A stretch of DNA of 28,763 nt from a virus. Location of the stretch: positions 1 through 28,763 of the IMG/VR virus record IMGVR_UViG_3300032342_000667; one strand, 5' to 3'. Positions 4,170 through 15,730 of the stretch are shown piece after piece. A model generated the notes under the pieces. That model was given only the letters and a program-made list of their open reading frames with translations. It was not told the DNA's origin and did no database searches. The translations under genes were made by a program, and so were the position numbers. Each line of letters opens with the position of its first letter. The first letter of the stretch is position 1.

Positions 4170-4199
4170 CCGCATTCCATGCCTTGGCCCCGCATTCCC
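4170..4199 (-). repeat. GGGAATGCGG repeats at the start of the leftward transcript
   Basis: An exact copy (4199-4190) is followed by a variant TGGAATGCGG (4179-4170), both oriented leftward. The exact copy begins about one base after the expected transcription start of the promoter at 4207-4234, so it would form the very 5' end of the operon mRNA. Confidence 0.9.
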
Positions 4200-6836: not shown

Positions 6837-7391
6837 ATGGAAAATCAAGTTGGTCACATGCCGCGCGGCCAGTCTGTTACGCAAATTCCAGACGCCGTGT
6901 TGGGAGTTCGGAAGGTCTTCACAGACGTCAACTGGGGCTCGACCGAAGCGATCAAGCCTCGTTTGACTGGTGCGGACGTCCATTGCCGGTTGGTGCAGAA
7001 CACCTCCGCTGGCGCGTTGCTTCCTGGTCAAGCCGTGGTTTGGAAGACTGGGTTCTTCCTGACTCAGATTGGTGCCACTGCTGGCTCGCTGTCGCTGGCG
7101 GCCGGAATCGTTGATGAGTATTTACCAGCCGCTGGCGTGCCCATCAATTCGTACTTCTGGCTGGTCGTTGAAGGTCCCACGCTGGTCATCAATGACGGTG
7201 TTGGTGTTTTGGCGGAAGGTGCGATCCTGGTCTGCTCGGCGACTGCTGGTCAGGTGCTGGCTCAGACCGCTGCTCCGGGGCAGGGTAGTGAATTGGCGCA
7301 GGTCAACGGTGTCATCGGCTTCACCTTGGCGTCCATCACGAACGTGGCCGCAACCAAAGGCCGAGCGGTAGTCAAACTCGCCTCTCGGTAA
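6837..7391 (+). CDS. Putative capsid decoration/stabilisation protein
   Basis: A 184-residue protein. AAGGACGA precedes the ATG. It is rich in Ala/Gly/Val with repeating short beta strands, and the C-terminal half (VLAEGAILVCSATAGQVLAQTA, then GVIGFTLAS) has the pattern seen in small head-decoration proteins where added and outgoing strands carry AxAGQV-type turns. It directly follows the major capsid gene and is the last gene before a strong terminator. The assignment rests on composition and position; other head roles are possible. Confidence 0.6.
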   Translation: MENQVGHMPRGQSVTQIPDAVLGVRKVFTDVNWGSTEAIKPRLTGADVHCRLVQNTSAGALLPGQAVVWKTGFFLTQIGATAGSLSLAAGIVDEYLPAAGVPINSYFWLVVEGPTLVINDGVGVLAEGAILVCSATAGQVLAQTAAPGQGSELAQVNGVIGFTLASITNVAATKGRAVVKLASR

Positions 7392-7438
7392 CGATTTCGG
7401 CAATGGGGGTCTTCGTTCCTGGCGAACGATTCCCATTT

Positions 7439-7476
7439 ATGCGGACCATCAAGCTCCGGTGGTCCGCATTTTTTTT
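7439..7476 (+). terminator. Rho-independent terminator after the head genes
   Basis: A perfect 10-bp stem (ATGCGGACCA / TGGTCCGCAT, 7439-7448 and 7460-7469) with an 11-nt loop, followed by a run of T to 7476. It ends the scaffold-capsid-decoration transcript. Confidence 0.9.
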
Positions 7477-7483
7477 GCGCTAC

Positions 7484-7511
7484 TTGACGCATTAGCCATA
7501 CACGCTAAACT
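7484..7511 (+). promoter_or_regulatory. Promoter with embedded palindromic operator, copy 1
   Basis: TTGACG (7484-7489), 16-bp spacer, TAAACT (7506-7511). Inside it is TTAGC-N7-GCTAA (7492-7508), overlapping the -10 box. The same boxes, spacing and palindrome occur at 10140-10167, so both promoters are probably controlled by the same regulator. Expected start near 7518, right before a hairpin. Confidence 0.75.
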
Positions 7512-7517
7512 GTACTG

Positions 7518-7603
7518 CGTTGGTCTGGCCGATCGACACTGGTTTCAGCCGTTTAATCGAGCCCAGTAGTAATACCGGAGGTAGAGCGGCTGGAGCCTTT
7601 TTT
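7518..7603 (+). ncRNA. Small structured RNA candidate 1
   Basis: A free-standing unit with its own promoter and terminator and no ORF. From the predicted start come a hairpin (GTTGGTC / GATCGAC, 7519-7537, 5-nt loop, two G-U pairs), then a closing stem GGTTTCAGCCG / CGGCTGGAGCC (7541-7551, 7587-7597; 11 pairs with two G-U) and six T. The large loop holds TCGAGC-CCAGTAGTA (7557-7571), shared with candidate 2 as TCGAGC-GCGCAGTAGCA. A GGGAATGCGG repeat follows immediately. Confidence 0.6.
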
Positions 7604-7613
7604 GGGAATGCGG
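7604..7613 (+). repeat. GGGAATGCGG repeat directly after an RNA terminator
   Basis: An exact copy that starts on the base after the T-run of the small RNA 1 terminator, in the direction of transcription. Confidence 0.9.
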
Positions 7614-7784
7614 GCTGAAGACAGGGAAGAAGCCCAGGAAGAAATAGCCCGTGCGGAGTCTGTTGTGGATCTGCATCCGAGTCTTCGGTGTCTCCCGCAC
7701 GGGCGCGGGGTTTGTGGGGACACCGACATAGAAAGACGTCGATTCGCTGATCGGATGGGTGCCAAGAGATTGGCGAGTGCGAAC
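7614..7784 (+). other. Non-coding structured segment between two terminators
   Basis: No credible gene. It contains a 10-bp perfect stem GCCCGTGCGG / CCGCACGGGC (7647-7656, 7695-7704) with smaller hairpins in its loop (such as GGAT-CTGC-ATCC). ORFs that cross it run through the terminator hairpins on either strand and have no ribosome binding site. No separate promoter was found; it may be read-through from RNA 1, or a second RNA. Confidence 0.4.
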
Positions 7785-7835
7785 GACCCGGTCGCGTCGT
7801 GTTCTCATGGGACACGACGCGGCCGGTCCTTTTTT
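7785..7835 (+). terminator. Strong rho-independent terminator
   Basis: An uninterrupted 10-bp core CGCGTCGTGT / ACACGACGCG (7793-7802, 7812-7821) with a 9-nt loop, extended outward by GACC / GGTC (7785-7788, 7825-7828), then six T (7830-7835). It separates the RNA segment from the gene at 7864. Confidence 0.85.
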
Positions 7836-7841
7836 AATCCA

Positions 7842-7851
7842 TGGAATGCGG
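7842..7851 (+). repeat. Variant repeat TGGAATGCGG after a terminator
   Basis: A one-base variant of GGGAATGCGG, 6 bp after the terminator T-run and 12 bp before the ATG at 7864. Its internal ATG is in frame with that gene. A weaker variant AGGAATGCAG lies at 7871-7880 within the first codons. Confidence 0.75.
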
Positions 7852-7863
7852 GGCCTATTGCAA

Positions 7864-8241
7864 ATGAATGAGGAATGCAGAAAAAACGTCAACACGTTTA
7901 CGACAGGCGCCGTACGAGGGACGGACGCTGACAGCACGAGGTACGATCTGATCAGCCCCGTCGCGATGCGCAGGATCGCCGAGACATACGCCGAAGGGGC
8001 GACGAAGTATGGCGCTCACAACTGGCGGAAGGGGTTTCCCGCTTCGGACCTGATGAACCACGCCCTGAAGCATCTCTACACGTTCTTGGCTGGTGATCGT
8101 TCCGAGGATCATCTAGCGCACGCCACATGGAATCTGATGGCGATCATGCACTTCCAGGAAAAGATGCCAGGGATGATTGACATACCGTGTGAAGCTCCCA
8201 TGCTTCCCGTAGAAAAACTCTCTCCCTGGAAGAGCACATGA
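7864..8241 (+). CDS. Putative dATP/dGTP diphosphohydrolase (MazZ-type N-terminal domain)
   Basis: 125 residues from the ATG at 7864. Residues about 23-105 show the family's run of motifs: YDLISPVAMRRIAETYAEGA, KYGAHNWRKG, SDLMNHALKHLYTF, GDRSEDHLAHATWNL and MAIMHFQE. This is an all-helical metal-dependent nucleotide pyrophosphohydrolase fold related to MazG; relatives cleave dATP/dGTP and shape the phage nucleotide pool. The ribosome binding site is poor. An alternative start at the ATG inside the repeat (7845) is in frame. No purZ or DNA polymerase gene is visible in the window to show which nucleotide is targeted. Confidence 0.75.
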   Translation: MNEECRKNVNTFTTGAVRGTDADSTRYDLISPVAMRRIAETYAEGATKYGAHNWRKGFPASDLMNHALKHLYTFLAGDRSEDHLAHATWNLMAIMHFQEKMPGMIDIPCEAPMLPVEKLSPWKST

Positions 8242-9296: not shown

Positions 9297-9489
9297 GGAA
9301 TATTTCATTGATTTCATTGAATTGCGAATGTTGTCAGTTGATGAGCTGAGCGTTCAGCTTCAGTACCGAATGAGGCCACCTGGAAAGAAGGGAGACTGGG
9401 GACCATGGCGAGACGCCAAAGTTCTGACGATCGGGGATCCGGAGAATCAGGCACAGGACGATCGTCCTGCCAAGCTCGCCCCCTTGTGA
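9280..9489 (+). CDS. Small hypothetical protein with a repeat-encoded N-terminus
   Basis: A 69-residue protein from the ATG at 9280, chosen because AAAGGA lies 8 nt upstream; an in-frame ATG at 9271 is too close to that site. It begins MSRECGEYFIDF, where RECG is the translated GGGAATGCGG repeat. The rest (YRMRPPGKKGDWGPWRDAKVL) looks like a small beta domain. It ends in a TGATG overlap with the next gene. Unknown function. Confidence 0.55.
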   Translation: MSRECGEYFIDFIELRMLSVDELSVQLQYRMRPPGKKGDWGPWRDAKVLTIGDPENQAQDDRPAKLAPL

Positions 9490-9698
9490 TGCGGATTTTC
9501 TGTCAGGCCTGCGAGGACGACCTCTCAGATACCGAGCGCACGATCAGTCGAATCTTCGAGGGCAAGTACTACTGCCTGGAGTGCTACACCGAGAAGGCCC
9601 ATGGTCGCGTCTTTTGCTACGAGCGGGAGAACTCCCAGTATCTCGGCGATCATCTGACACCACGTCAGTTCGCAAAACTTGACCGCGAGGACGAATGA
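9489..9698 (+). CDS. Small zinc-ribbon-like protein
   Basis: A 69-residue protein starting MRIFCQACEDDL. CQAC at residues 5-8 and CLEC at about 31-34 make a treble-clef-like CxxC pair, with a further Cys and His nearby (HGRVFCYE). The start overlaps the upstream stop (TGATG). One of several tiny zinc-binding-like proteins in the accessory segment. Role unknown. Confidence 0.6.
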   Translation: MRIFCQACEDDLSDTERTISRIFEGKYYCLECYTEKAHGRVFCYERENSQYLGDHLTPRQFAKLDREDE

Positions 9699-10126
9699 TG
9701 AAGAAGCCGTTGGATGTGATTGAGGTGGTGGCGGTGATCAACGTCAAACTCCCAGACCCAGCCGTGAGGGCCTTACGCCTGCTGACGAGAACCTACCTCT
9801 CGCAGGCGCTGCATTTGCTGAATATCGAAGAGAACTTGGCGGACACCGCCTCCGGTAATTCAGCGACCACCACCCAGTACGATCTGATTCAGAAATCACT
9901 GAGAGCCTTTGGTGGCGCCCCTGGAAAAGACGAGGCCGCGGAACTGCTGCAAGAAGTGATCGGCCGGATTTCCGAGTTCAGGAGTAACGTGGCGCGTTTC
10001 ACCTCACGGAAAGATCGTTTGCTGGCCGAGATCAAAACCCTGCAAGAACAGGTCGATAAGTTGATCCAGAAAAAACGCCTCTTCAAAGAGGTCAGGAATC
10101 ATCACGCCGAGCCAGTGCAGGAATGA
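9695..10126 (+). CDS. Hypothetical coiled-coil protein
   Basis: A 143-residue protein. GAGG lies ahead of overlapping ATGATG starts at the end of the previous gene. The N-terminus is helical/hydrophobic (ALRLLTRTYLSQALHLL). Residues about 90-130 form a coiled coil (LLAEIKTLQEQVDKLIQKKR). No catalytic motif. A weak AATCAT/ATGATT stem followed by seven T at the stop may end this transcript just before the next promoter. Confidence 0.65.
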   Translation: MMKKPLDVIEVVAVINVKLPDPAVRALRLLTRTYLSQALHLLNIEENLADTASGNSATTTQYDLIQKSLRAFGGAPGKDEAAELLQEVIGRISEFRSNVARFTSRKDRLLAEIKTLQEQVDKLIQKKRLFKEVRNHHAEPVQE

Positions 10127-10139
10127 TTTTTTTGGGCCA

Positions 10140-10167
10140 TTGACAGATTAGCTTTTGCCGCTAATCT
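10140..10167 (+). promoter_or_regulatory. Promoter with embedded palindromic operator, copy 2
   Basis: TTGACA (10140-10145), 16-bp spacer, TAATCT (10162-10167). A perfect 8-bp inverted repeat AGATTAGC-N7-GCTAATCT (10145-10152, 10160-10167) spans from the last base of the -35 to the end of the -10. The TTAGC-N7-GCTAA core matches copy 1 at 7492-7508. A bound protein would block polymerase, so repression is the likely mode. Confidence 0.85.
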
Positions 10168-10173
10168 ATGTGA

Positions 10174-10266
10174 ATCACCAACGCGAGTTGGCAAGGTCGA
10201 CCGCACGACCAAAGGTGAGAAAAGCTGGCGACTTCGAGCGCGCAGTAGCACTCACCTTCCCTTTTT
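10174..10266 (+). ncRNA. Small structured RNA candidate 2
   Basis: It starts at the predicted initiation site. Three hairpins follow: CCAAC-GCGA-GTTGG (10178-10191, a GNRA tetraloop); GGTCG-ACCGCA-CGACC (10195-10210); and a closing stem AAGGTGAG / CTCACCTT (10212-10219, 10251-10258). After CCC and five T the transcript may end, though the CCC makes it a weaker terminator. The loop contains TCGAGC-GCGCAGTAGCA, shared with RNA 1. The second loop contains CCGCA, the exact complement of TGCGG in the dispersed repeat. If transcription reads through, this is the leader of the Cas12-like gene. Confidence 0.6.
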
Positions 10267-10272
10267 ATGTAG

Positions 10273-10282
10273 GGGAATGCGG
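10273..10282 (+). repeat. GGGAATGCGG repeat between RNA 2 and the Cas12-like gene
   Basis: An exact copy just after the RNA 2 T-run. It is followed by a GCGCT-TCGTAGT-AGCGC hairpin (about 10289-10305) and then the ribosome binding site of the next gene. Confidence 0.9.
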
Positions 10283-10326
10283 AGAGAGCGCTTCGTAGTA
10301 GCGCGTAAAAAAGAAAGGGGATGCGT

Positions 10327-11583
10327 ATGTTAGTTAGTGTGACTCCATTTGAGATTTTCAAGTTCGCTGGTGGGGACAAGGCTCGTCGCGCGCAGTGGAA
10401 GCTAGTCTCCGAGGAATGCCAGCAGATTCACAATCGAGTCTGGCAGCTATTCCTCCAGTGGCATAGCGTTAATGGGTCTGTTGCAAAGATCAAGGCTGGC
10501 TTGGAGGCCTTGGCTGCTTGGCGTGCGGCAGGTGGAGACAAGGAGACGAAACCTAAGCCGGAAGTGGTGGCGATCGGCTCCGAGCTTAGCAAGATCATCT
10601 ACCGTGATGTATCTGATGGCTGGCCGGATGTTCACTCACGCACCAGAGTGCTGCTGCTGAATCGTTTAGTATCCGGCATCCGAACCCGCAAGGCTTGCAG
10701 AGGCTCCTTGCCGGGTTGGATCAATATCCTGTTCTGCCGGGAGGGAATCCCATCCTTCACGCATCCAGTTCCGATTCCATTCGATAAGGTAAACTCCCAT
10801 CTGATTCCTCCTGACGACGAGAACGATAACTGGCGGCTGTCGGTGAAGGTGGAGCGGTCGCCTAGTGACGGCCACTCCCTGGTAGATGAGTGTGAACTCA
10901 TGACCCGCAAGCGAAAGACACGCAGAATCGCTGGCGTGCTCTCTAGGATCGCTGAGGGACTGTCATCGTTTCGTGGCTCCTATTTGGTATGTGATCGCGG
11001 GAAGTGGGTTGCCATGATCTGCCACACCTCAGCCGCGGAGCAGGCTAACATGCTCGACTCCACCAGGAAGGCCATCCTCATGCCGGGGGTGCATAACGCG
11101 TGGGTGGTGAAGAAGAACGGCATGATACGTCGTCGATTCGCTGACCGGAATGGTGAAGCGAGGCACGTCCTTGGTATGCGTCGGTTGATCTTCGGTGAAC
11201 GTCAGGAGCGGCAGGCAAATTACCGCTGGGCCTCGTCCAGCCTTAAGGGTCACGGCCGCGGGAAAGCCACGCACGGATGGGAAAAGCTCTCCAGCCGCTG
11301 GCGTGATTTCGTGAAGCGTTACAACAACGAGATCACGACGAAGCTGGTGAAGGAGTGCGTGCAGGACGGGATTGGAACGATCGAGTACTACCAGCCAGTT
11401 GATTTCCAGCGCGATCGGCGCTGGCTAACCGGGAAAGACTACCGTTGTGGCTGGGACTATTTTCAGGTTAAAACGATGCTCTCCCAGAAGTGTCAACGGG
11501 CTGGCATCGTGTTTACAACGAAGCAGATCGGTGCGGTGGAGGAGGGCGCGAAGCCAGCCACCATACCTCGAAAAACTGCCTAA
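10327..11583 (+). CDS. Cas12/TnpB-like protein, apparently nuclease-dead
   Basis: 418 residues from the ATG at 10327 (AAAGGGG with 6-nt spacing; the ATG at 10321 is too close). The C-terminal half follows the Cas12/TnpB plan: a strand pair with GKWVAMI (about 225-231); a RuvC-I-like segment LMPGVHNAWVV (251-261); KGHGRG with basic helices (307-312); a long helix (LSSRWRDFVKRYNNEITTKL); and a RuvC-II-like strand GIGTIEYYQP with Glu353. At RuvC-I the expected Asp before (P/L)G is Met252. The protein stops about where the TSxxCxxCG zinc ribbon and RuvC-III Asp should follow. It would therefore bind RNA and DNA without cutting, like TnpB-derived repressors (TldR). It sits behind RNA 2 and before the repeat array. 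The family call is from motif reading. Confidence 0.65.
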   Translation: MLVSVTPFEIFKFAGGDKARRAQWKLVSEECQQIHNRVWQLFLQWHSVNGSVAKIKAGLEALAAWRAAGGDKETKPKPEVVAIGSELSKIIYRDVSDGWPDVHSRTRVLLLNRLVSGIRTRKACRGSLPGWINILFCREGIPSFTHPVPIPFDKVNSHLIPPDDENDNWRLSVKVERSPSDGHSLVDECELMTRKRKTRRIAGVLSRIAEGLSSFRGSYLVCDRGKWVAMICHTSAAEQANMLDSTRKAILMPGVHNAWVVKKNGMIRRRFADRNGEARHVLGMRRLIFGERQERQANYRWASSSLKGHGRGKATHGWEKLSSRWRDFVKRYNNEITTKLVKECVQDGIGTIEYYQPVDFQRDRRWLTGKDYRCGWDYFQVKTMLSQKCQRAGIVFTTKQIGAVEEGAKPATIPRKTA

Positions 11584-11590
11584 CTATCAA

Positions 11591-11710
11591 GGGAATGCGG
11601 GCTGCTGGGCGCACTGGAGGTGAAGTGGGTAAGGGAATCAATAGGGAATGCGGGAATTCCGACTCGCCTCGACGGGTGAAGTGGGCGAGGGAATCAATAG
11701 GGAATGCGGG
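11591..11710 (+). repeat. Three GGGAATGCGG repeats with a 56-bp tandem duplication
   Basis: Exact copies at 11591-11600, 11644-11653 and 11700-11709. The last two lie in a duplicated 36-bp block (11619-11654 and 11675-11710, 34/36 identical) offset by 56 bp, twice the 28-bp period of the later array. Each block also has the half-copy AGGGAATC just before the full repeat. The segment follows the Cas12-like stop and has no credible gene. Confidence 0.9.
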
Positions 11711-11721
11711 CCGGGCAAGCA

Positions 11722-11988
11722 ATGACTAGATTTTTCCGATCGTGTTTCATCTGCCATGATATCGTCTCAGTCAGTGCAAAGGTCGCTGGGCGTGGTGAGA
11801 AGGTGTATTGTTCCGATCATGGCAAGTACGCCACGGTCATAACCAGAAAGGCCAATACTTATGTCAGAGAACCAGGAAAACGCCGTGTGGTCGCAGTCAA
11901 TCGCCAAGGCCCGGGAGCTTCGCCGGAAGGGGGCGGGATTGCTGTGGGATCGCGTGAAGATTCTGATCGGGGTTTACAAGGACAGTGA
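11722..11988 (+). CDS. Small Cys/His protein, overlaps the next gene by 128 bp
   Basis: 88 residues from the ATG at 11722. CFICH (about 8-12) and CSDH (about 30-33) suggest a zinc-binding site in the first 45 residues. The C-terminal 40 residues lie in another frame over the start of the next gene and look low-quality (Gly/Arg/Ser rich), as if only the N-terminal part is under selection. No good ribosome binding site; an in-frame ATG at 11704 lies inside the repeat. Function unknown. Confidence 0.45.
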   Translation: MTRFFRSCFICHDIVSVSAKVAGRGEKVYCSDHGKYATVITRKANTYVREPGKRRVVAVNRQGPGASPEGGGIAVGSREDSDRGLQGQ

Positions 11989-12367
11989 CTTTCTGGCGCA
12001 CTGCGATTCACTCGATCGCAATGCGGAGGACGTGCTCGACGACGAGCTGTCGGACACCTGTTCGGAGTTCCTGCCTCTGAAGATTACCATGGAGTACTTT
12101 CCCGAGAAAAACGACTGGCTGAACACGAAGATTGACGTCCTGCGTGCCAAGGCCGAGGAGATGTGCAAGAAAAGCCGTCATGATGGAGAGGAGATCACGC
12201 GTGATCGGCCTTCCTGGAAAGAACGGTACATGGAATTGAAGCGGAAGTACGACGCCTCCCAGATCGAGTGGCAGCTCAAGCACGACGCCCTGCAGAAGAG
12301 CCACGACGTCATGGAGGCCCGGTTTGAGGAGCTGTCGAAGGTGCTGCAGTTCCAGGCGACGCATTGA
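11861..12367 (+). CDS. Hypothetical coiled-coil protein preceding the repeat array
   Basis: A 168-residue protein. AGAAAGG lies about 9 nt before the ATG. The protein is acidic and strongly helical. Residues about 85-168 look like a continuous coiled coil (KERYMELKRKYDASQIEWQL, then SHDVMEARFEELSKVL). No enzymatic motif. It lies between the Cas12-like gene and the 28-bp repeat array on the same strand, so it could be part of the same module; this is position-based inference. Confidence 0.65.
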   Translation: MSENQENAVWSQSIAKARELRRKGAGLLWDRVKILIGVYKDSDFLAHCDSLDRNAEDVLDDELSDTCSEFLPLKITMEYFPEKNDWLNTKIDVLRAKAEEMCKKSRHDGEEITRDRPSWKERYMELKRKYDASQIEWQLKHDALQKSHDVMEARFEELSKVLQFQATH

Positions 12368-12371
12368 AAAG

Positions 12372-12548
12372 GGGAATGCGGTAGTACTCCTCAACCCTAG
12401 GGAATGCGGGTGGGAACCGTGATGTCAGGGAATGCGGGGGGGTCATCGGCTCGATAGGGAATGCGGGTATACGTCGCATCAACTGGGAATGCGGGGCAAG
12501 GGTGATGCTAGGGAATGCGGGTTCGTCGTTTTGCCCGAGGGAATGCGG
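12372..12548 (+). repeat. Array of seven GGGAATGCGG repeats, about 28-bp period, unique spacers
   Basis: Exact repeats start at 12372, 12400, 12428, 12457, 12485, 12511 and 12539 (steps 28, 28, 29, 28, 26, 28). The six intervening spacers are 16-19 bp and unrelated to each other. The repeat is usually extended to AGGGAATGCGGG. A degenerate eighth unit (ACAATGCGAG) falls in the spacer of the promoter at 12561-12588. The layout is CRISPR-like in miniature, but the repeat is far shorter than a CRISPR repeat and has no internal hairpin. It could instead be an array of protein-binding sites next to a promoter. Confidence 0.9.
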
Positions 12549-12560
12549 GGTACACTAGGC

Positions 12561-12588
12561 TTGACAAAAACAATGCGAGAAGTAGGAT
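12561..12588 (+). promoter_or_regulatory. Promoter at the 3' end of the repeat array
   Basis: TTGACA (12561-12566), 16-bp spacer, TAGGAT (12583-12588). The expected start (about 12594) coincides with the first base of a perfect 9-bp hairpin. It lacks the TTAGC-N7-GCTAA operator of the other two RNA promoters but abuts the seven-repeat array. Confidence 0.7.
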
Positions 12589-12593
12589 GAACG

Positions 12594-13255
12594 CCACTGA
12601 GGGATGAGATCCTCAGTGGTGCGGAAGGCGAGCGAGATTAAAGGCCAAACGTAATATGAGTACATCACTGCAATTTTCGTTACGTTTGGCAAAGCTCGCT
12701 AACGAAAACTCACTTCAACAGCCAGCTCCTTCGGGTTCTGGCTGTTGTCGTTTGCGTCACAGGCATTGCTTGCCAAACGGGCTTTCTCTGACCACACCCG
12801 TAACAGTCTGGTGGTCGAAATCCGATATGCCAAAAACCCGTAAGACGGGTGGCGAAGTAGTGGGTCGAACGGTTGTGGGCAATCTGGTTCACGACGAGAG
12901 TCGAGCACGGACAGCTCGTCTCTTCCACCAAAAGCACATGGCATCTTCGGTAATCGGTGAAACGCACAAAGCGCTGCCCGGCTTCAACTCGGCAGATTCC
13001 AGGAGTATTCCTGGAACGCGTGCGTCTAAAGCACAAACAGATTAACGTGTACCGATTGAAAACTCATGTCACCCCCCCTTTAGCTGTTGAGGGGGAAAGG
13101 GGGTGTCTTCGCCAGAGTTTGACCCCACTTCAGTCAGACGTCACCATCGGCGGACTCCAAGAGTGTCGAGTGCTCTTGGCTGAGGAGGGTCGTCACGAGA
13201 CAAGCCTGTCACGCCTATCGACCCGCGAAAAGAGCCTTCAAAGGCTAAGAGAAAG
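12594..13255 (+). ncRNA. Large, densely structured non-coding RNA candidate
   Basis: About 660 nt with its own promoter and no credible ORF. Perfect stems in order: CCACTGAGG/CCTCAGTGG (12594-12619); AGCGAG/CTCGCT enclosing GCCAAACGTAA/TTACGTTTGGC (12631-12700); AACGA/TCGTT enclosing AACAGCCAG/CTGGCTGTT with a UUCG loop (12701-12752); GACCAC/GTGGTC (12790-12816); ACCCGT/ACGGGT (12836-12850); GACGAG/CTCGTC (12893-12920); AATCGGT/ACCGATT (12952, 13057) enclosing ACGCAC/GTGCGT and two hairpins, one of them TTCCAGGA/TCCTGGAA; a C-rich/G-rich stem (13070-13105); CCAAGAG/CTCTTGG (13157-13179); GGGTCG/CGACCC (13187-13224). It recalls the GOLLD/ROOL class by size and phage context only. It may end as the leader of the gene at 13260. 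Confidence 0.65.
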
Positions 13256-13259
13256 AACC

Positions 13260-13442
13260 ATGAAAAAACAACAGACCGACGCCCAGAAGCGACGCGACAG
13301 GAGGCCAGTGAAATTCACCCCTGTCCATGCTTGTTCGCGCTGCGGCGTTAAACGCGTGGTGACTGTTCAGGAGGAGAGGCAGGCCGCACGACTGCGGTGC
13401 TTTGAGTGTGGTGGACCAATGAACCGCATCAGCCAAACTTGA
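13260..13442 (+). CDS. Tiny zinc-ribbon protein
   Basis: A 60-residue protein. A basic N-terminal tail (MKKQQTDAQKRRDRRPVKF) is followed by CSRCG and CFECGG, a CxxC-x20-CxxCG zinc ribbon. The tail suggests RNA or DNA contact. It lies directly downstream of the large structured RNA, so it may be translated from the same transcript and could bind it, which is inference. The ribosome binding site is weak (AAGAGAAAG). Confidence 0.6.
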   Translation: MKKQQTDAQKRRDRRPVKFTPVHACSRCGVKRVVTVQEERQAARLRCFECGGPMNRISQT

Positions 13443-13468
13443 CTGGTAGTGGCGGGATACGCTACCTT
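13439..13468 (+). promoter_or_regulatory. Possible promoter ahead of the packaging genes
   Basis: TTGACT (13439-13444), 18-bp spacer, TACCTT (13463-13468), with the inverted repeat GGTAG / CTACC (13445-13449, 13462-13466) between the boxes. The predicted start would fall at the ATG at 13475, giving a leaderless message, so this is uncertain. The inverted repeat could instead be an RNA hairpin. Confidence 0.35.
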
Positions 13469-13474
13469 TCAGGA

Positions 13475-14014
13475 ATGAGCACGACGATTGTGGACAATAA
13501 CGGCAACACCCGGGTGGTGCCTGACATCAAGAAGCGGATGCGAAAGTGCATCGTCTGTGGACTGCCCAGGTTTGACGCTGACTTCACGTCCGATCAGGTG
13601 CGCTGCGACGTCTGCGTGTTCCGGGCGCGCGACAAGGAGTTGACTGAAAAGGTCGATTCCGCGCTGCAAAACACCGTGCTTTCGATCTTGCAGCGGACCC
13701 AGACTGGTGAAAGTGCCACGGAGTTTGCTCCGGTGGTGGACGGATTGTTCGCCCGATTCGGCGGTGTTGATGGGTTCTGCGACGACTGGTACAGCCAGAT
13801 CGCCATCGCCATGCGTGATCGTCCTGGTACGATGGGAATCCTGAACCACTTCAAGGCGATTGCTGAGCTGGTGAAGAAGGCCAAGCCAGACTCCCCTCTG
13901 GGTGATCTCTCCAAGAAAACTGATGCCGAGTTGATATCGGCCGTCAGGAGCTTCTTGGTGACTGAGCAAACTCCCCGTATCGAAGGACCGTTCTCGGTGG
14001 CTCCTCTGCCATAG
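13475..14014 (+). CDS. Putative small terminase subunit
   Basis: 179 residues from the ATG at 13475. The N-terminal region has CIVCG and CDVC (about 24-45), a zinc-finger-like pair. The rest is helical: an oligomerisation-like segment (LTEKVDSALQNTVLSILQR), then GLFARFGGVDGFCDDW and a final helical part. Size, helical make-up and position immediately upstream of the large terminase fit a DNA-recognition terminase subunit; sequence alone is not diagnostic. AGGA is directly adjacent to the ATG, an unusual spacing. Confidence 0.5.
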   Translation: MSTTIVDNNGNTRVVPDIKKRMRKCIVCGLPRFDADFTSDQVRCDVCVFRARDKELTEKVDSALQNTVLSILQRTQTGESATEFAPVVDGLFARFGGVDGFCDDWYSQIAIAMRDRPGTMGILNHFKAIAELVKKAKPDSPLGDLSKKTDAELISAVRSFLVTEQTPRIEGPFSVAPLP

Positions 14015-14026
14015 TCAGGCGCCGTA

Positions 14027-15730
14027 GTGCCCAGACACCGTTGTGGAATGGACGCTGCCCAACTTCGCGACTTCATGCGCGAGTTGTCGGATCGTGGCGA
14101 GGAATCCCTGAAGCTCTTCCGGCCGCAGGAGCATCAGGAGGAGATTTTCACCAGCACGGCTTCTGAACTGTTGATCCGCGGAGGCAACCGTAGCGGCAAG
14201 AGCGTGTGCGTTGCGGTGCTTCTGGCCTCGGAGATGATGCGCACTCCGGTGCGGGATCACATCGGCGTTCTACTGCCGCTCCACGCCCCCCCAGAGGGCA
14301 ACAAGATGACGGTCTGGCTCGTGGGGTACGGCGAGAAGCATATTGGCCAGACCTTTCACAGACTCTTGTTCCAGCCGGGTTTGTTCGAGATCATCAAGGA
14401 CGAGCAAACGCAGGCTTGGCGCGCGTATCAGCCGTGGAGGGATTGGGACCGGCGTAAGGAGCGAAAGCCAGCACCTCCCCTGATTCCGAGACGCATGATC
14501 GACAAGGGCGGTTGGGGTTGGAAGAACAAGTCCATCCGCCACTTCGAGGTCTGTCGCTTGGTGAATGGAACGGAGATTTTCGCCTTCACTTCGATCGGTG
14601 ATCCGAAGATGGGTGATCCCGTGGACAGGGTGTGGGTGGATGAGGCGATCCGTTTCCCGAAGCATTACGCTGAATGGCAGGCGAGAATTTCGGATCGCAA
14701 GGGCAGGATCTTCTGGTCCGCGTGGCCGGGCCGCGTGAATAGTGCCTTGATTAACCTGCACTCCCGCGCCAAGGCCCAAGTGACGCGCATTCCACCAGAC
14801 GTCCAGGAAGTGAGACTGGCGTTCAGTCAGAACCAATTCGTGGATGACGACGAGAAGAGAAAGCGTCTGGAGGGCTGGAGCCCGGACGAGGCGCTCAGTC
14901 GCGACCTGGGTGAGTTCGTGCGAGGCAACTCCCAGGTTTACCCAACTTTCTCGGCAGCTCTTCACAGCACCCCCTGTCAGGCAGAATCACAGGATGACGA
15001 GGTGGATGCGGTATTGCGAAAAACCAACGGCGTTCCACCGGACGACTGGAGTCGAACCTTGATTCTGGATCCGGGCCACACGCATCCAGGAGTTCTCTTT
15101 GCGGCGATTCCCCCTCCGCGATTAGTGAAAAACGGCGACAAGATCGTTTGCGGCGTGGTCTACGACGAGATTTACCTACCAAGCTCCGACGCCACGGAAA
15201 TCGCCAAGGCTTGTCTGCCGAAGATGGAGGGGTACGCCTTCCACACTTTTCTGATTGACTTTCATGCTGGCAGGCAGACCCCGATGGGGTTCAGCATGAC
15301 CATTGCCGATCAGTACTCCAATGCCTTCCGGGAGCAGGGGCTTTTCTCCTTGCAGAGTGGCAGCGCTTTCTCGTGGTCCAGTGATGACGTGGAGGGTGGG
15401 CTGGAACTAGTCAGGGTGCGTCTGCGCCCGGCGAGGAAGTTTCGCCCGTGGCTCAGGGTGGTGTCCAAGACCTGTCCGAATTTCATGCAGCAGATGGAAT
15501 TGTACGAGAAACAGACCGATGCCAGGGGGTTTGTGTTGAACAAGCCAGCTCCACGGCAGGTGGATTGTCTGTGCGATTGTGTTCGGTATTGGGTTCAGAA
15601 CGACCCCACCTACATTACACCCGATCAGCCGATTCGGGTGAAAAGTCCAGCTTGGTTGGCCTTTACCAATGACTGGAGCGAGAAACCGAAGGGCCAAGTT
15701 TCAATCACTTTGGGAATGAAGGAGCGATAA
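14027..15730 (+). CDS. terL: Terminase large subunit (packaging ATPase/nuclease)
   Basis: 567 residues from a GTG with AGG 7 nt upstream; an ATG at 14048 is an alternative. ATPase domain: Walker A GGNRSGKS (residues 52-59) and Walker B VWVDEA (Asp205-Glu206). Nuclease domain: acidic residues in LILDPG (Asp348), FLIDFH (Asp411) and a late Asp in CLCDCVRYW (about residue 517), the layout of the RNase H-like TerL nuclease. It packages and cuts phage DNA at the portal. The stop overlaps the next start (TAATG). Confidence 0.92.
   Translation: MPRHRCGMDAAQLRDFMRELSDRGEESLKLFRPQEHQEEIFTSTASELLIRGGNRSGKSVCVAVLLASEMMRTPVRDHIGVLLPLHAPPEGNKMTVWLVGYGEKHIGQTFHRLLFQPGLFEIIKDEQTQAWRAYQPWRDWDRRKERKPAPPLIPRRMIDKGGWGWKNKSIRHFEVCRLVNGTEIFAFTSIGDPKMGDPVDRVWVDEAIRFPKHYAEWQARISDRKGRIFWSAWPGRVNSALINLHSRAKAQVTRIPPDVQEVRLAFSQNQFVDDDEKRKRLEGWSPDEALSRDLGEFVRGNSQVYPTFSAALHSTPCQAESQDDEVDAVLRKTNGVPPDDWSRTLILDPGHTHPGVLFAAIPPPRLVKNGDKIVCGVVYDEIYLPSSDATEIAKACLPKMEGYAFHTFLIDFHAGRQTPMGFSMTIADQYSNAFREQGLFSLQSGSAFSWSSDDVEGGLELVRVRLRPARKFRPWLRVVSKTCPNFMQQMELYEKQTDARGFVLNKPAPRQVDCLCDCVRYWVQNDPTYITPDQPIRVKSPAWLAFTNDWSEKPKGQVSITLGMKER

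What the first reader, a model, noticed from the sequence alone, without database searches (positions are those of the whole stretch)
12594..13255. About 660-nt ornate non-coding RNA candidate starting at a promoter
At least ten perfect stems of 5-11 bp, nested multi-branch junctions (for example AATCGGT/ACCGATT enclosing ACGCAC/GTGCGT and two hairpins) and a UUCG loop, with no credible ORF. The first hairpin begins at the predicted transcription start. Size, complexity and phage setting recall GOLLD and ROOL RNAs, some of which form large multimers, but I do not recognise the specific consensus.
Basis: partly seen in the sequence, partly recalled or inferred. Interest (0 to 1): 0.8.

Follow-up and report, generated by a model that had tools for sequence, protein, structure and literature searches.

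The report
Large orphan structured phage RNA
An uncultured tailed phage carries a roughly 650-base stretch that codes for no protein, folds far more strongly than chance, and sits just ahead of its DNA-packaging genes and just behind what looks like a switched-off CRISPR-like guide system; what it does is not known.

Summary
12594-13255 is the most strongly folding 662-base block of the record (z -6.2 against 120 shuffles; first of 43 blocks on each strand), with 15 confident helices of at least 5 bp and no frame with gene-like codon use. It begins at a TTGACA-16-TAGGAT promoter-like site and has no terminator before the packaging genes (p60, TerS-like, TerL). It matches no Rfam family, GOLLD and ROOL included. 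The only other copy is in a nearly identical contig, so covariation cannot be tested; 15 related loci, 12 of them covering the place, lack it. It ends a private insert of about 5-6 kb between the capsid and terminase genes. That insert also encodes a Cas12f-like protein without RuvC catalytic residues or C-terminal nuclease part, a candidate tracr-like RNA, and two arrays of a 10-12 nt repeat. I read the region as a large structured RNA transcribed as the leader of the packaging operon (0.4). Rivals are a stand-alone GOLLD/ROOL-like RNA, a DNA-level element and a part of the guide system. Minus-strand folding is nearly as strong (z -5.2), so RNA-level function is likely but unproven.

The parts
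12561..12588 (+). Promoter-like site TTGACA-16-TAGGAT, start of transcription expected at about 12596; overlaps the end of the last array unit
   Evidence: 10 of 12 matches; 1.9 expected by chance in 5.3 kb, so position is the main support
12594..13255 (+). Structured non-coding element (candidate large RNA)
   Evidence: z -6.2; first of 43 blocks on each strand; non-coding; no Rfam family
12594..12619 (+). First hairpin, 9 bp, 8-nt loop, at the expected transcription start
   Evidence: mean pair probability 0.99; z -3.6
12644..12690 (+). 12-bp stem GCCAAACGUAAU/GUUACGUUUGGC with 23-nt loop
   Evidence: mean pair probability 0.96
12716..12747 (+). 10-bp stem with an inner C(UUCG)G loop
   Evidence: mean pair probability 0.94
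12862..13125 (+). Domain closed by a 9-bp helix (12862-12870/13117-13125), holding hairpins 12872-12895 and 12902-12918 and the multi-branch junction 12951-13058
   Evidence: pair probabilities 0.80-1.00; 12938-13073 alone z -3.35, 12872-12924 alone z -3.4
13260..13442 (+). p60, 60-aa zinc-ribbon-like ORF directly downstream; its codon score (0.001) is weak
   Evidence: no terminator-like site between the RNA and this ORF on the + strand
13466..14014 (+). TerS-like gene (place before TerL; matches ORFs at the same place in relatives)
   Evidence: tblastn E 1e-7 to 1e-12 in 9 of 11 loci; naming it TerS is an inference from place
14027..15730 (+). Terminase large subunit (TerL)
   Evidence: PHROG phrog_2 E 2.2e-11
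12372..12566 (+). Array of seven GGGAATGCGG repeats, starts 26-29 nt apart, ending at the promoter of the RNA (neighbouring module)
   Evidence: 25 matches with up to 1 mismatch in the window against 2.9 expected
10321..11583 (+). Cas12f/TnpB-like protein, apparently RuvC-dead and C-terminally truncated (neighbouring module)
   Evidence: PADLOC Cas12f E 1.9e-14; PDB 9i8y E 4.7e-9; alignments
10175..10290 (+). Candidate tracr-like/guide RNA: hairpin with CCGCA in its loop, TTCCC, then the repeat GGGGAATGCGG and a guide
   Evidence: (z -2.7 for 10175-10282)
11591..11720 (+). Three repeat copies behind the Cas12f-like gene, two of them in a 36-nt repeat, starts 53-56 nt apart
   Evidence: D2, D3

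Best explanation
A large (about 650 nt) structured RNA of a tailed phage, made from its own promoter at about 12596 and, for want of a terminator, read on into p60, the TerS-like gene and TerL. It is thus most likely a giant structured leader of the packaging operon, acting in cis on when or how much of that operon is transcribed or translated, and perhaps processed into a separate RNA. It came with, or evolved at the edge of, a 5-6 kb accessory insert that also carries a Cas12f-like guide system. Shown: extreme fold, no coding signal, position, no Rfam match, absence from the relatives examined. Inferred: transcription, read-through, function in cis.
For: Fold z -6.2, first of 43 blocks on each strand; non-coding; promoter-like site ending just before the first hairpin; of four perfect TTGACA on the + strand only this one and 10140 have a usable -10, and both precede structured segments; last hairpin ends 13 nt before the ATG of p60 with no T run, although the phage has plain hairpin-plus-T-run terminators elsewhere (7440-7477, 7790-7836).
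Against: No transcript data. The promoter score alone is at chance level. The minus strand folds almost as well (z -5.2). The relatives run their terminase genes without any such leader, so it is not needed for packaging gene expression in general. p60 has weak codon support.
Confidence: 0.4

Rival explanations
1. A stand-alone ornate RNA that works like GOLLD or ROOL: an abundant free RNA, perhaps a multimer, made late in infection.
For: Size (662 nt; the ROOL studied by cryo-EM is 659 nt), number of helices, own promoter-like site, phage setting.
Against: No Rfam match, no tRNA nearby, no terminator at its 3' end, no homologue beyond a nearly identical contig.
Confidence: 0.25
2. A DNA-level element: inverted repeats at a replication origin or packaging site beside iteron-like direct repeats; the fold is that of single-stranded or extruded DNA.
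For: Both strands fold well (z -6.2 and -5.2), only 6 of 105 confident pairs are G-U, and the strand difference is matched by 10 of 120 shuffles. Seven direct repeats with nearly regular spacing lie next to it, and it lies before the terminase genes.
Against: Repeats lie all over the accessory regions, in the direction of the genes, unlike an origin; complementarity of the repeat to a structured segment beside the Cas12f-like gene suggests a guide repeat; stems differ in sequence and no protein-site pattern was seen.
Confidence: 0.17
3. Part of the neighbouring Cas12f-like guide system: a long scaffold, a 3' extension of the array transcript or a regulator of it.
For: Starts about 30 nt behind the last array unit, in the same direction and the same private insert.
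Against: No good anti-repeat in it (best -10.9 kcal/mol against -13.9 elsewhere in 9300-13500); a better tracr-like candidate lies directly before the gene; no such RNA seen in the E. faecium relative.
Confidence: 0.13
4. A protein-coding stretch (12656-13045 or a reverse frame).
For: Open frames of 129 and 108 aa exist.
Against: Codon scores of the two + strand frames tested (-0.148, -0.118) lie below all 116 gene windows; the two - strand frames (-0.082, -0.045) lie within the wrong-frame range. No Pfam match for the first frame.
Confidence: 0.02

Closest known systems
GOLLD and ROOL RNAs (PMC12286853, passages)
   Same: Phage-borne, 600-800 nt, many helices, no protein coded
   Different: No covariance-model match, no tRNA nearby, no terminator, one phage lineage only
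Structured 5' leaders of bacterial and phage operons (general knowledge, recalled)
   Same: Promoter-like site, hairpins up to the next gene, no terminator in between
   Different: Much longer than usual leaders; no known leader family matched
TldR / nuclease-dead Cas12f regulators (neighbouring module, not this RNA)
   Same: Neighbouring Cas12f-like protein appears to lack RuvC residues; phage-borne; guide-like RNA beside the gene (TldR: PMC13418256, passages)
   Different: Carries arrays of very short repeats plus scattered single repeats; the 660-nt element has no counterpart in the TldR passages read

Membership tests
GOLLD / ROOL | Match to the family's covariance model | tested here: not met
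   cmscan against 4227 Rfam families: none at gathering scores in the window; none for these families at E<=5 in 12300-13500
GOLLD / ROOL | Often near phage tRNA genes (not strictly defining) | tested here: not met
   ARAGORN: 0 tRNA or tmRNA genes in 28.8 kb; the record may be a fragment
GOLLD / ROOL | Covarying secondary structure | not testable with these tools
   Only other copy has no difference in the RNA
GOLLD / ROOL | Ordered homo-multimer | not testable with these tools
   Needs biochemistry or cryo-EM
Operon leader RNA | Promoter upstream and no terminator before the next gene | tested here: inconclusive
   Site present but at chance expectation; no terminator-like site at the 3' end
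Operon leader RNA | Changes expression of the downstream genes | not testable with these tools
   Needs a reporter experiment
Nuclease-dead Cas12f/TldR (neighbour 10321-11583) | Homology to Cas12f/TnpB | tested here: met
   PADLOC Cas12f E 1.9e-14, PDB 9i8y E 4.7e-9; below the NCBIfam guided_TnpB cut-off (32.8 of 100 bits) and the Pfam OrfB_IS605 cut-off (21.6 of 30.5)
Nuclease-dead Cas12f/TldR (neighbour 10321-11583) | RuvC catalytic residues lost | tested here: met
   RuvC-I D and RuvC-II E positions appear to hold M and Y in the alignment to 9i8y, read by eye, and the protein ends before RuvC-III and the zinc domain; catalytic positions are recalled
Nuclease-dead Cas12f/TldR (neighbour 10321-11583) | Guide RNA with a DNA target | tested here: inconclusive
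   Candidate guide RNA found. No self or L004 match of 20 guides beyond a 10-nt start, apart from the repeats. In 12 related loci no guide stands out from its shuffles except 1 of 19 (repeat at 4199, - strand, 2 mismatches), whose guide contains part of the repeat

The most novel reading that the evidence does not exclude
A new class of giant phage RNA that belongs to an exapted, nuclease-dead Cas12f guide locus with miniature (10-12 nt) repeats, and that couples this RNA-guided regulator to the phage's packaging operon.
Probability: 0.1. Interest if true: 0.85.

Novelty: new variant of a known kind. Interest (0 to 1): 0.5.

Why it matters
Large structured phage RNAs are few and their functions are open. 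An orphan one placed between a probable RNA-guided regulator and the terminase operon gives a concrete, testable setting: promoter, operon and neighbouring guide system are all defined. The neighbouring module may be the more important find: a Cas12f-like, apparently dead effector with a tracr-like RNA and repeats as short as 10-12 nt, scattered also upstream of several phage genes.

Tried and rejected
Rfam at both thresholds: nothing credible. Homologues of the RNA: blastn against phage records, exact hairpin pattern in viral contigs, blastn against loci, a covariance model of one sub-domain in 19 sources and in 392 genomes of one phylum: only the window and the nearly identical contig. Scans of viral contigs with p60 and p168: the same contig only. 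AlphaFold of the Cas12f-like protein without an alignment failed (mean pLDDT 31.9), so no fold search was made. The Cas12f-like protein had no match in phage records or in 199 genomes of one phylum. Guide targets: none convincing. Protein coding: rejected. tRNA/tmRNA: none. Phylum-wide searches with the capsid protein found one related prophage (42% identity; 1 of 392 genomes in one phylum, 0 of 288 in the other), without the RNA.

Full report
What is there. The segment 12594-13255 folds far more strongly than its composition predicts (-263 kcal/mol against -214.7 +/- 7.8 for 120 shuffles, z -6.2). Among 86 blocks of 662 nt that tile the record on both strands, it is first on each strand. Base-pair probabilities give 28 helices of at least 4 bp, of which 15 have at least 5 bp and mean probability >=0.80. 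The UUCG hairpin and the AATCGGT/ACCGATT junction are real features of the ensemble. In 120-nt windows no part of it is extreme by itself on the + strand; it is the sum of many good stems that stands out.

It is not a gene. Codon use in every frame of the segment is like that of wrong frames. The 12656-13045 ORF scores -0.148, below the lowest of 116 windows from 27 genes.

RNA or DNA? The plus strand folds better than the minus strand by 11.8 kcal/mol, which 10 of 120 shuffles reach. Only 6 of 105 confident pairs are G-U. So strand-specific (RNA) selection is favoured by context, not proven by the fold. A TTGACA-16-TAGGAT site ends just before the first hairpin. The scan expects 1.9 such sites by chance in 5.3 kb, but of the four perfect TTGACA on the + strand of the window only this one and 10140 have a usable -10, and both stand right before structured segments. 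At the 3' end there is no T run; the last hairpin ends 13 nt before the ATG of p60. Elsewhere the phage has plain hairpin-plus-T-run terminators. Hence the inference that transcripts run on into p60, the TerS-like gene and TerL.

Conservation. The only other copy lies in IMGVR_UViG_3300032516_003155, which differs at 2 of 9846 bases, neither in the RNA. Eleven contigs found through the capsid protein (one of them the contig of L004, several nearly alike), three more found through TerL (L010-L012) and one prophage in a genome of the phylum of a Rubripirellula MAG show no blastn match to the RNA better than E 0.07 and no match to the Cas12f-like protein at the limits used (E 0.01, 0.1). L010-L012 are short or begin at or near TerL, so their lack says little. 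From the capsid gene to TerL is 1.3-3.1 kb in 7 representatives and 7.3 kb here. The RNA is therefore the last part of a private insert of roughly 5-6 kb.

The neighbourhood. The insert encodes a 420-aa Cas12f/TnpB-like protein (PADLOC Cas12f E 1.9e-14; PDB 9i8y E 4.7e-9; a weak match, E 0.59, to 9n9c 'Nuclease-deactivated Cas12f'). In the printed alignments the RuvC-I Asp and RuvC-II Glu positions appear to hold M and Y, and the protein stops before RuvC-III and the zinc domain. The pairing is read by eye, and which positions are catalytic is recalled. The motif GGGAATGCGG occurs 19 times exactly (25 times with up to 1 mismatch, 2.9 expected): seven times in an array with starts 26-29 nt apart that ends at the promoter of the RNA; three times with 53-56 nt spacing just behind the Cas12f-like gene, two of these within a 36-nt repeat; and otherwise alone or in small groups. 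14 copies are on + and 5 on -, in the direction of the genes around them. Directly upstream of the Cas12f-like gene is a 108-nt structured segment (z -2.7) with a hairpin whose loop holds CCGCA, complementary to the 3' half of the motif, then TTCCC, complementary to its 5' half, then the motif itself. Of 8 hairpins with CCGCA in the loop in the whole window this is the only one followed by both; the test was made after seeing it. This resembles Cas12f tracrRNA-crRNA pairing as I recall it, and it makes the motif a candidate miniature CRISPR-type repeat with 16-19 nt guides. No convincing targets were found.

A relative of that protein. tblastn in plasmid records found 75 Enterococcus records. 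The one examined, from Enterococcus faecium, is a 408-aa Cas12f-like protein (PADLOC Cas12f E 5.8e-45) that aligns at 24% identity to 190-396 of the phage protein and ends at about the same place; behind it lie two copies of a 150-nt block, each running into 36-nt repeats. So truncated Cas12f-like proteins with arrays exist outside this phage. Phage-encoded dead TnpB regulators (TldR) with short guides are described in PMC13418256 (passages), and inactivated type V effectors that block transcription in PMC12669027 (passages). My searches of the paper library for Cas12f, TnpB, TldR or Cas12 with related terms listed no paper whose title or shown abstract describes an array of such short repeats. 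I opened passages of only four papers, one of them on GOLLD and ROOL, so this is a narrow check.

Does the RNA belong to that system? Only position says so. It has no good anti-repeat (best -10.9 kcal/mol, against -13.9 elsewhere in 9300-13500), though by the same measure the tracr candidate's loop is not first either (-11.8), since the measure ignores its split pairing. I give this 0.13.

Against GOLLD and ROOL: no match to any of 4227 Rfam models and no tRNA. It may still work like GOLLD or ROOL (0.25); membership is not met.

Verdict. A real, unusually structured, non-coding phage element, orphan in the collections searched. Most likely a giant leader or processed RNA of the packaging operon (0.4). 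Transcription, RNA-level function and mechanism are inferred.

Noticed in passing
10321-11583 with 10175-10290, 11591-11720, 12372-12566: Cas12f-like, apparently RuvC-dead protein with a tracr-like segment and two arrays of a very short repeat: possibly a phage RNA-guided regulator.
   Followed up: partly
1212-1221, 2111-2152, 4190-4199 (- strand); 7604, 9250, 9287, 10273 (+ strand): Single or paired copies of GGGAATGCGG outside the arrays, in the direction of the genes around them; several lie shortly before a likely gene start.
   Followed up: partly
7298-7959: Second most structured 662-nt block on the + strand; holds strong hairpin-plus-T-run terminators at about 7440-7477 and 7790-7836.
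   Followed up: partly
L146 862-2800 (Enterococcus faecium plasmid NZ_LR134109.1): Truncated Cas12f-like protein followed by two 150-nt blocks 97% alike, each running into 36-nt repeats with 63-66 nt spacing.
   Followed up: partly
   Followed up: partly
7759-8241: dATP/dGTP diphosphohydrolase N-terminal domain (Pfam E 4.7e-20) at the start of the private insert.
   Followed up: no
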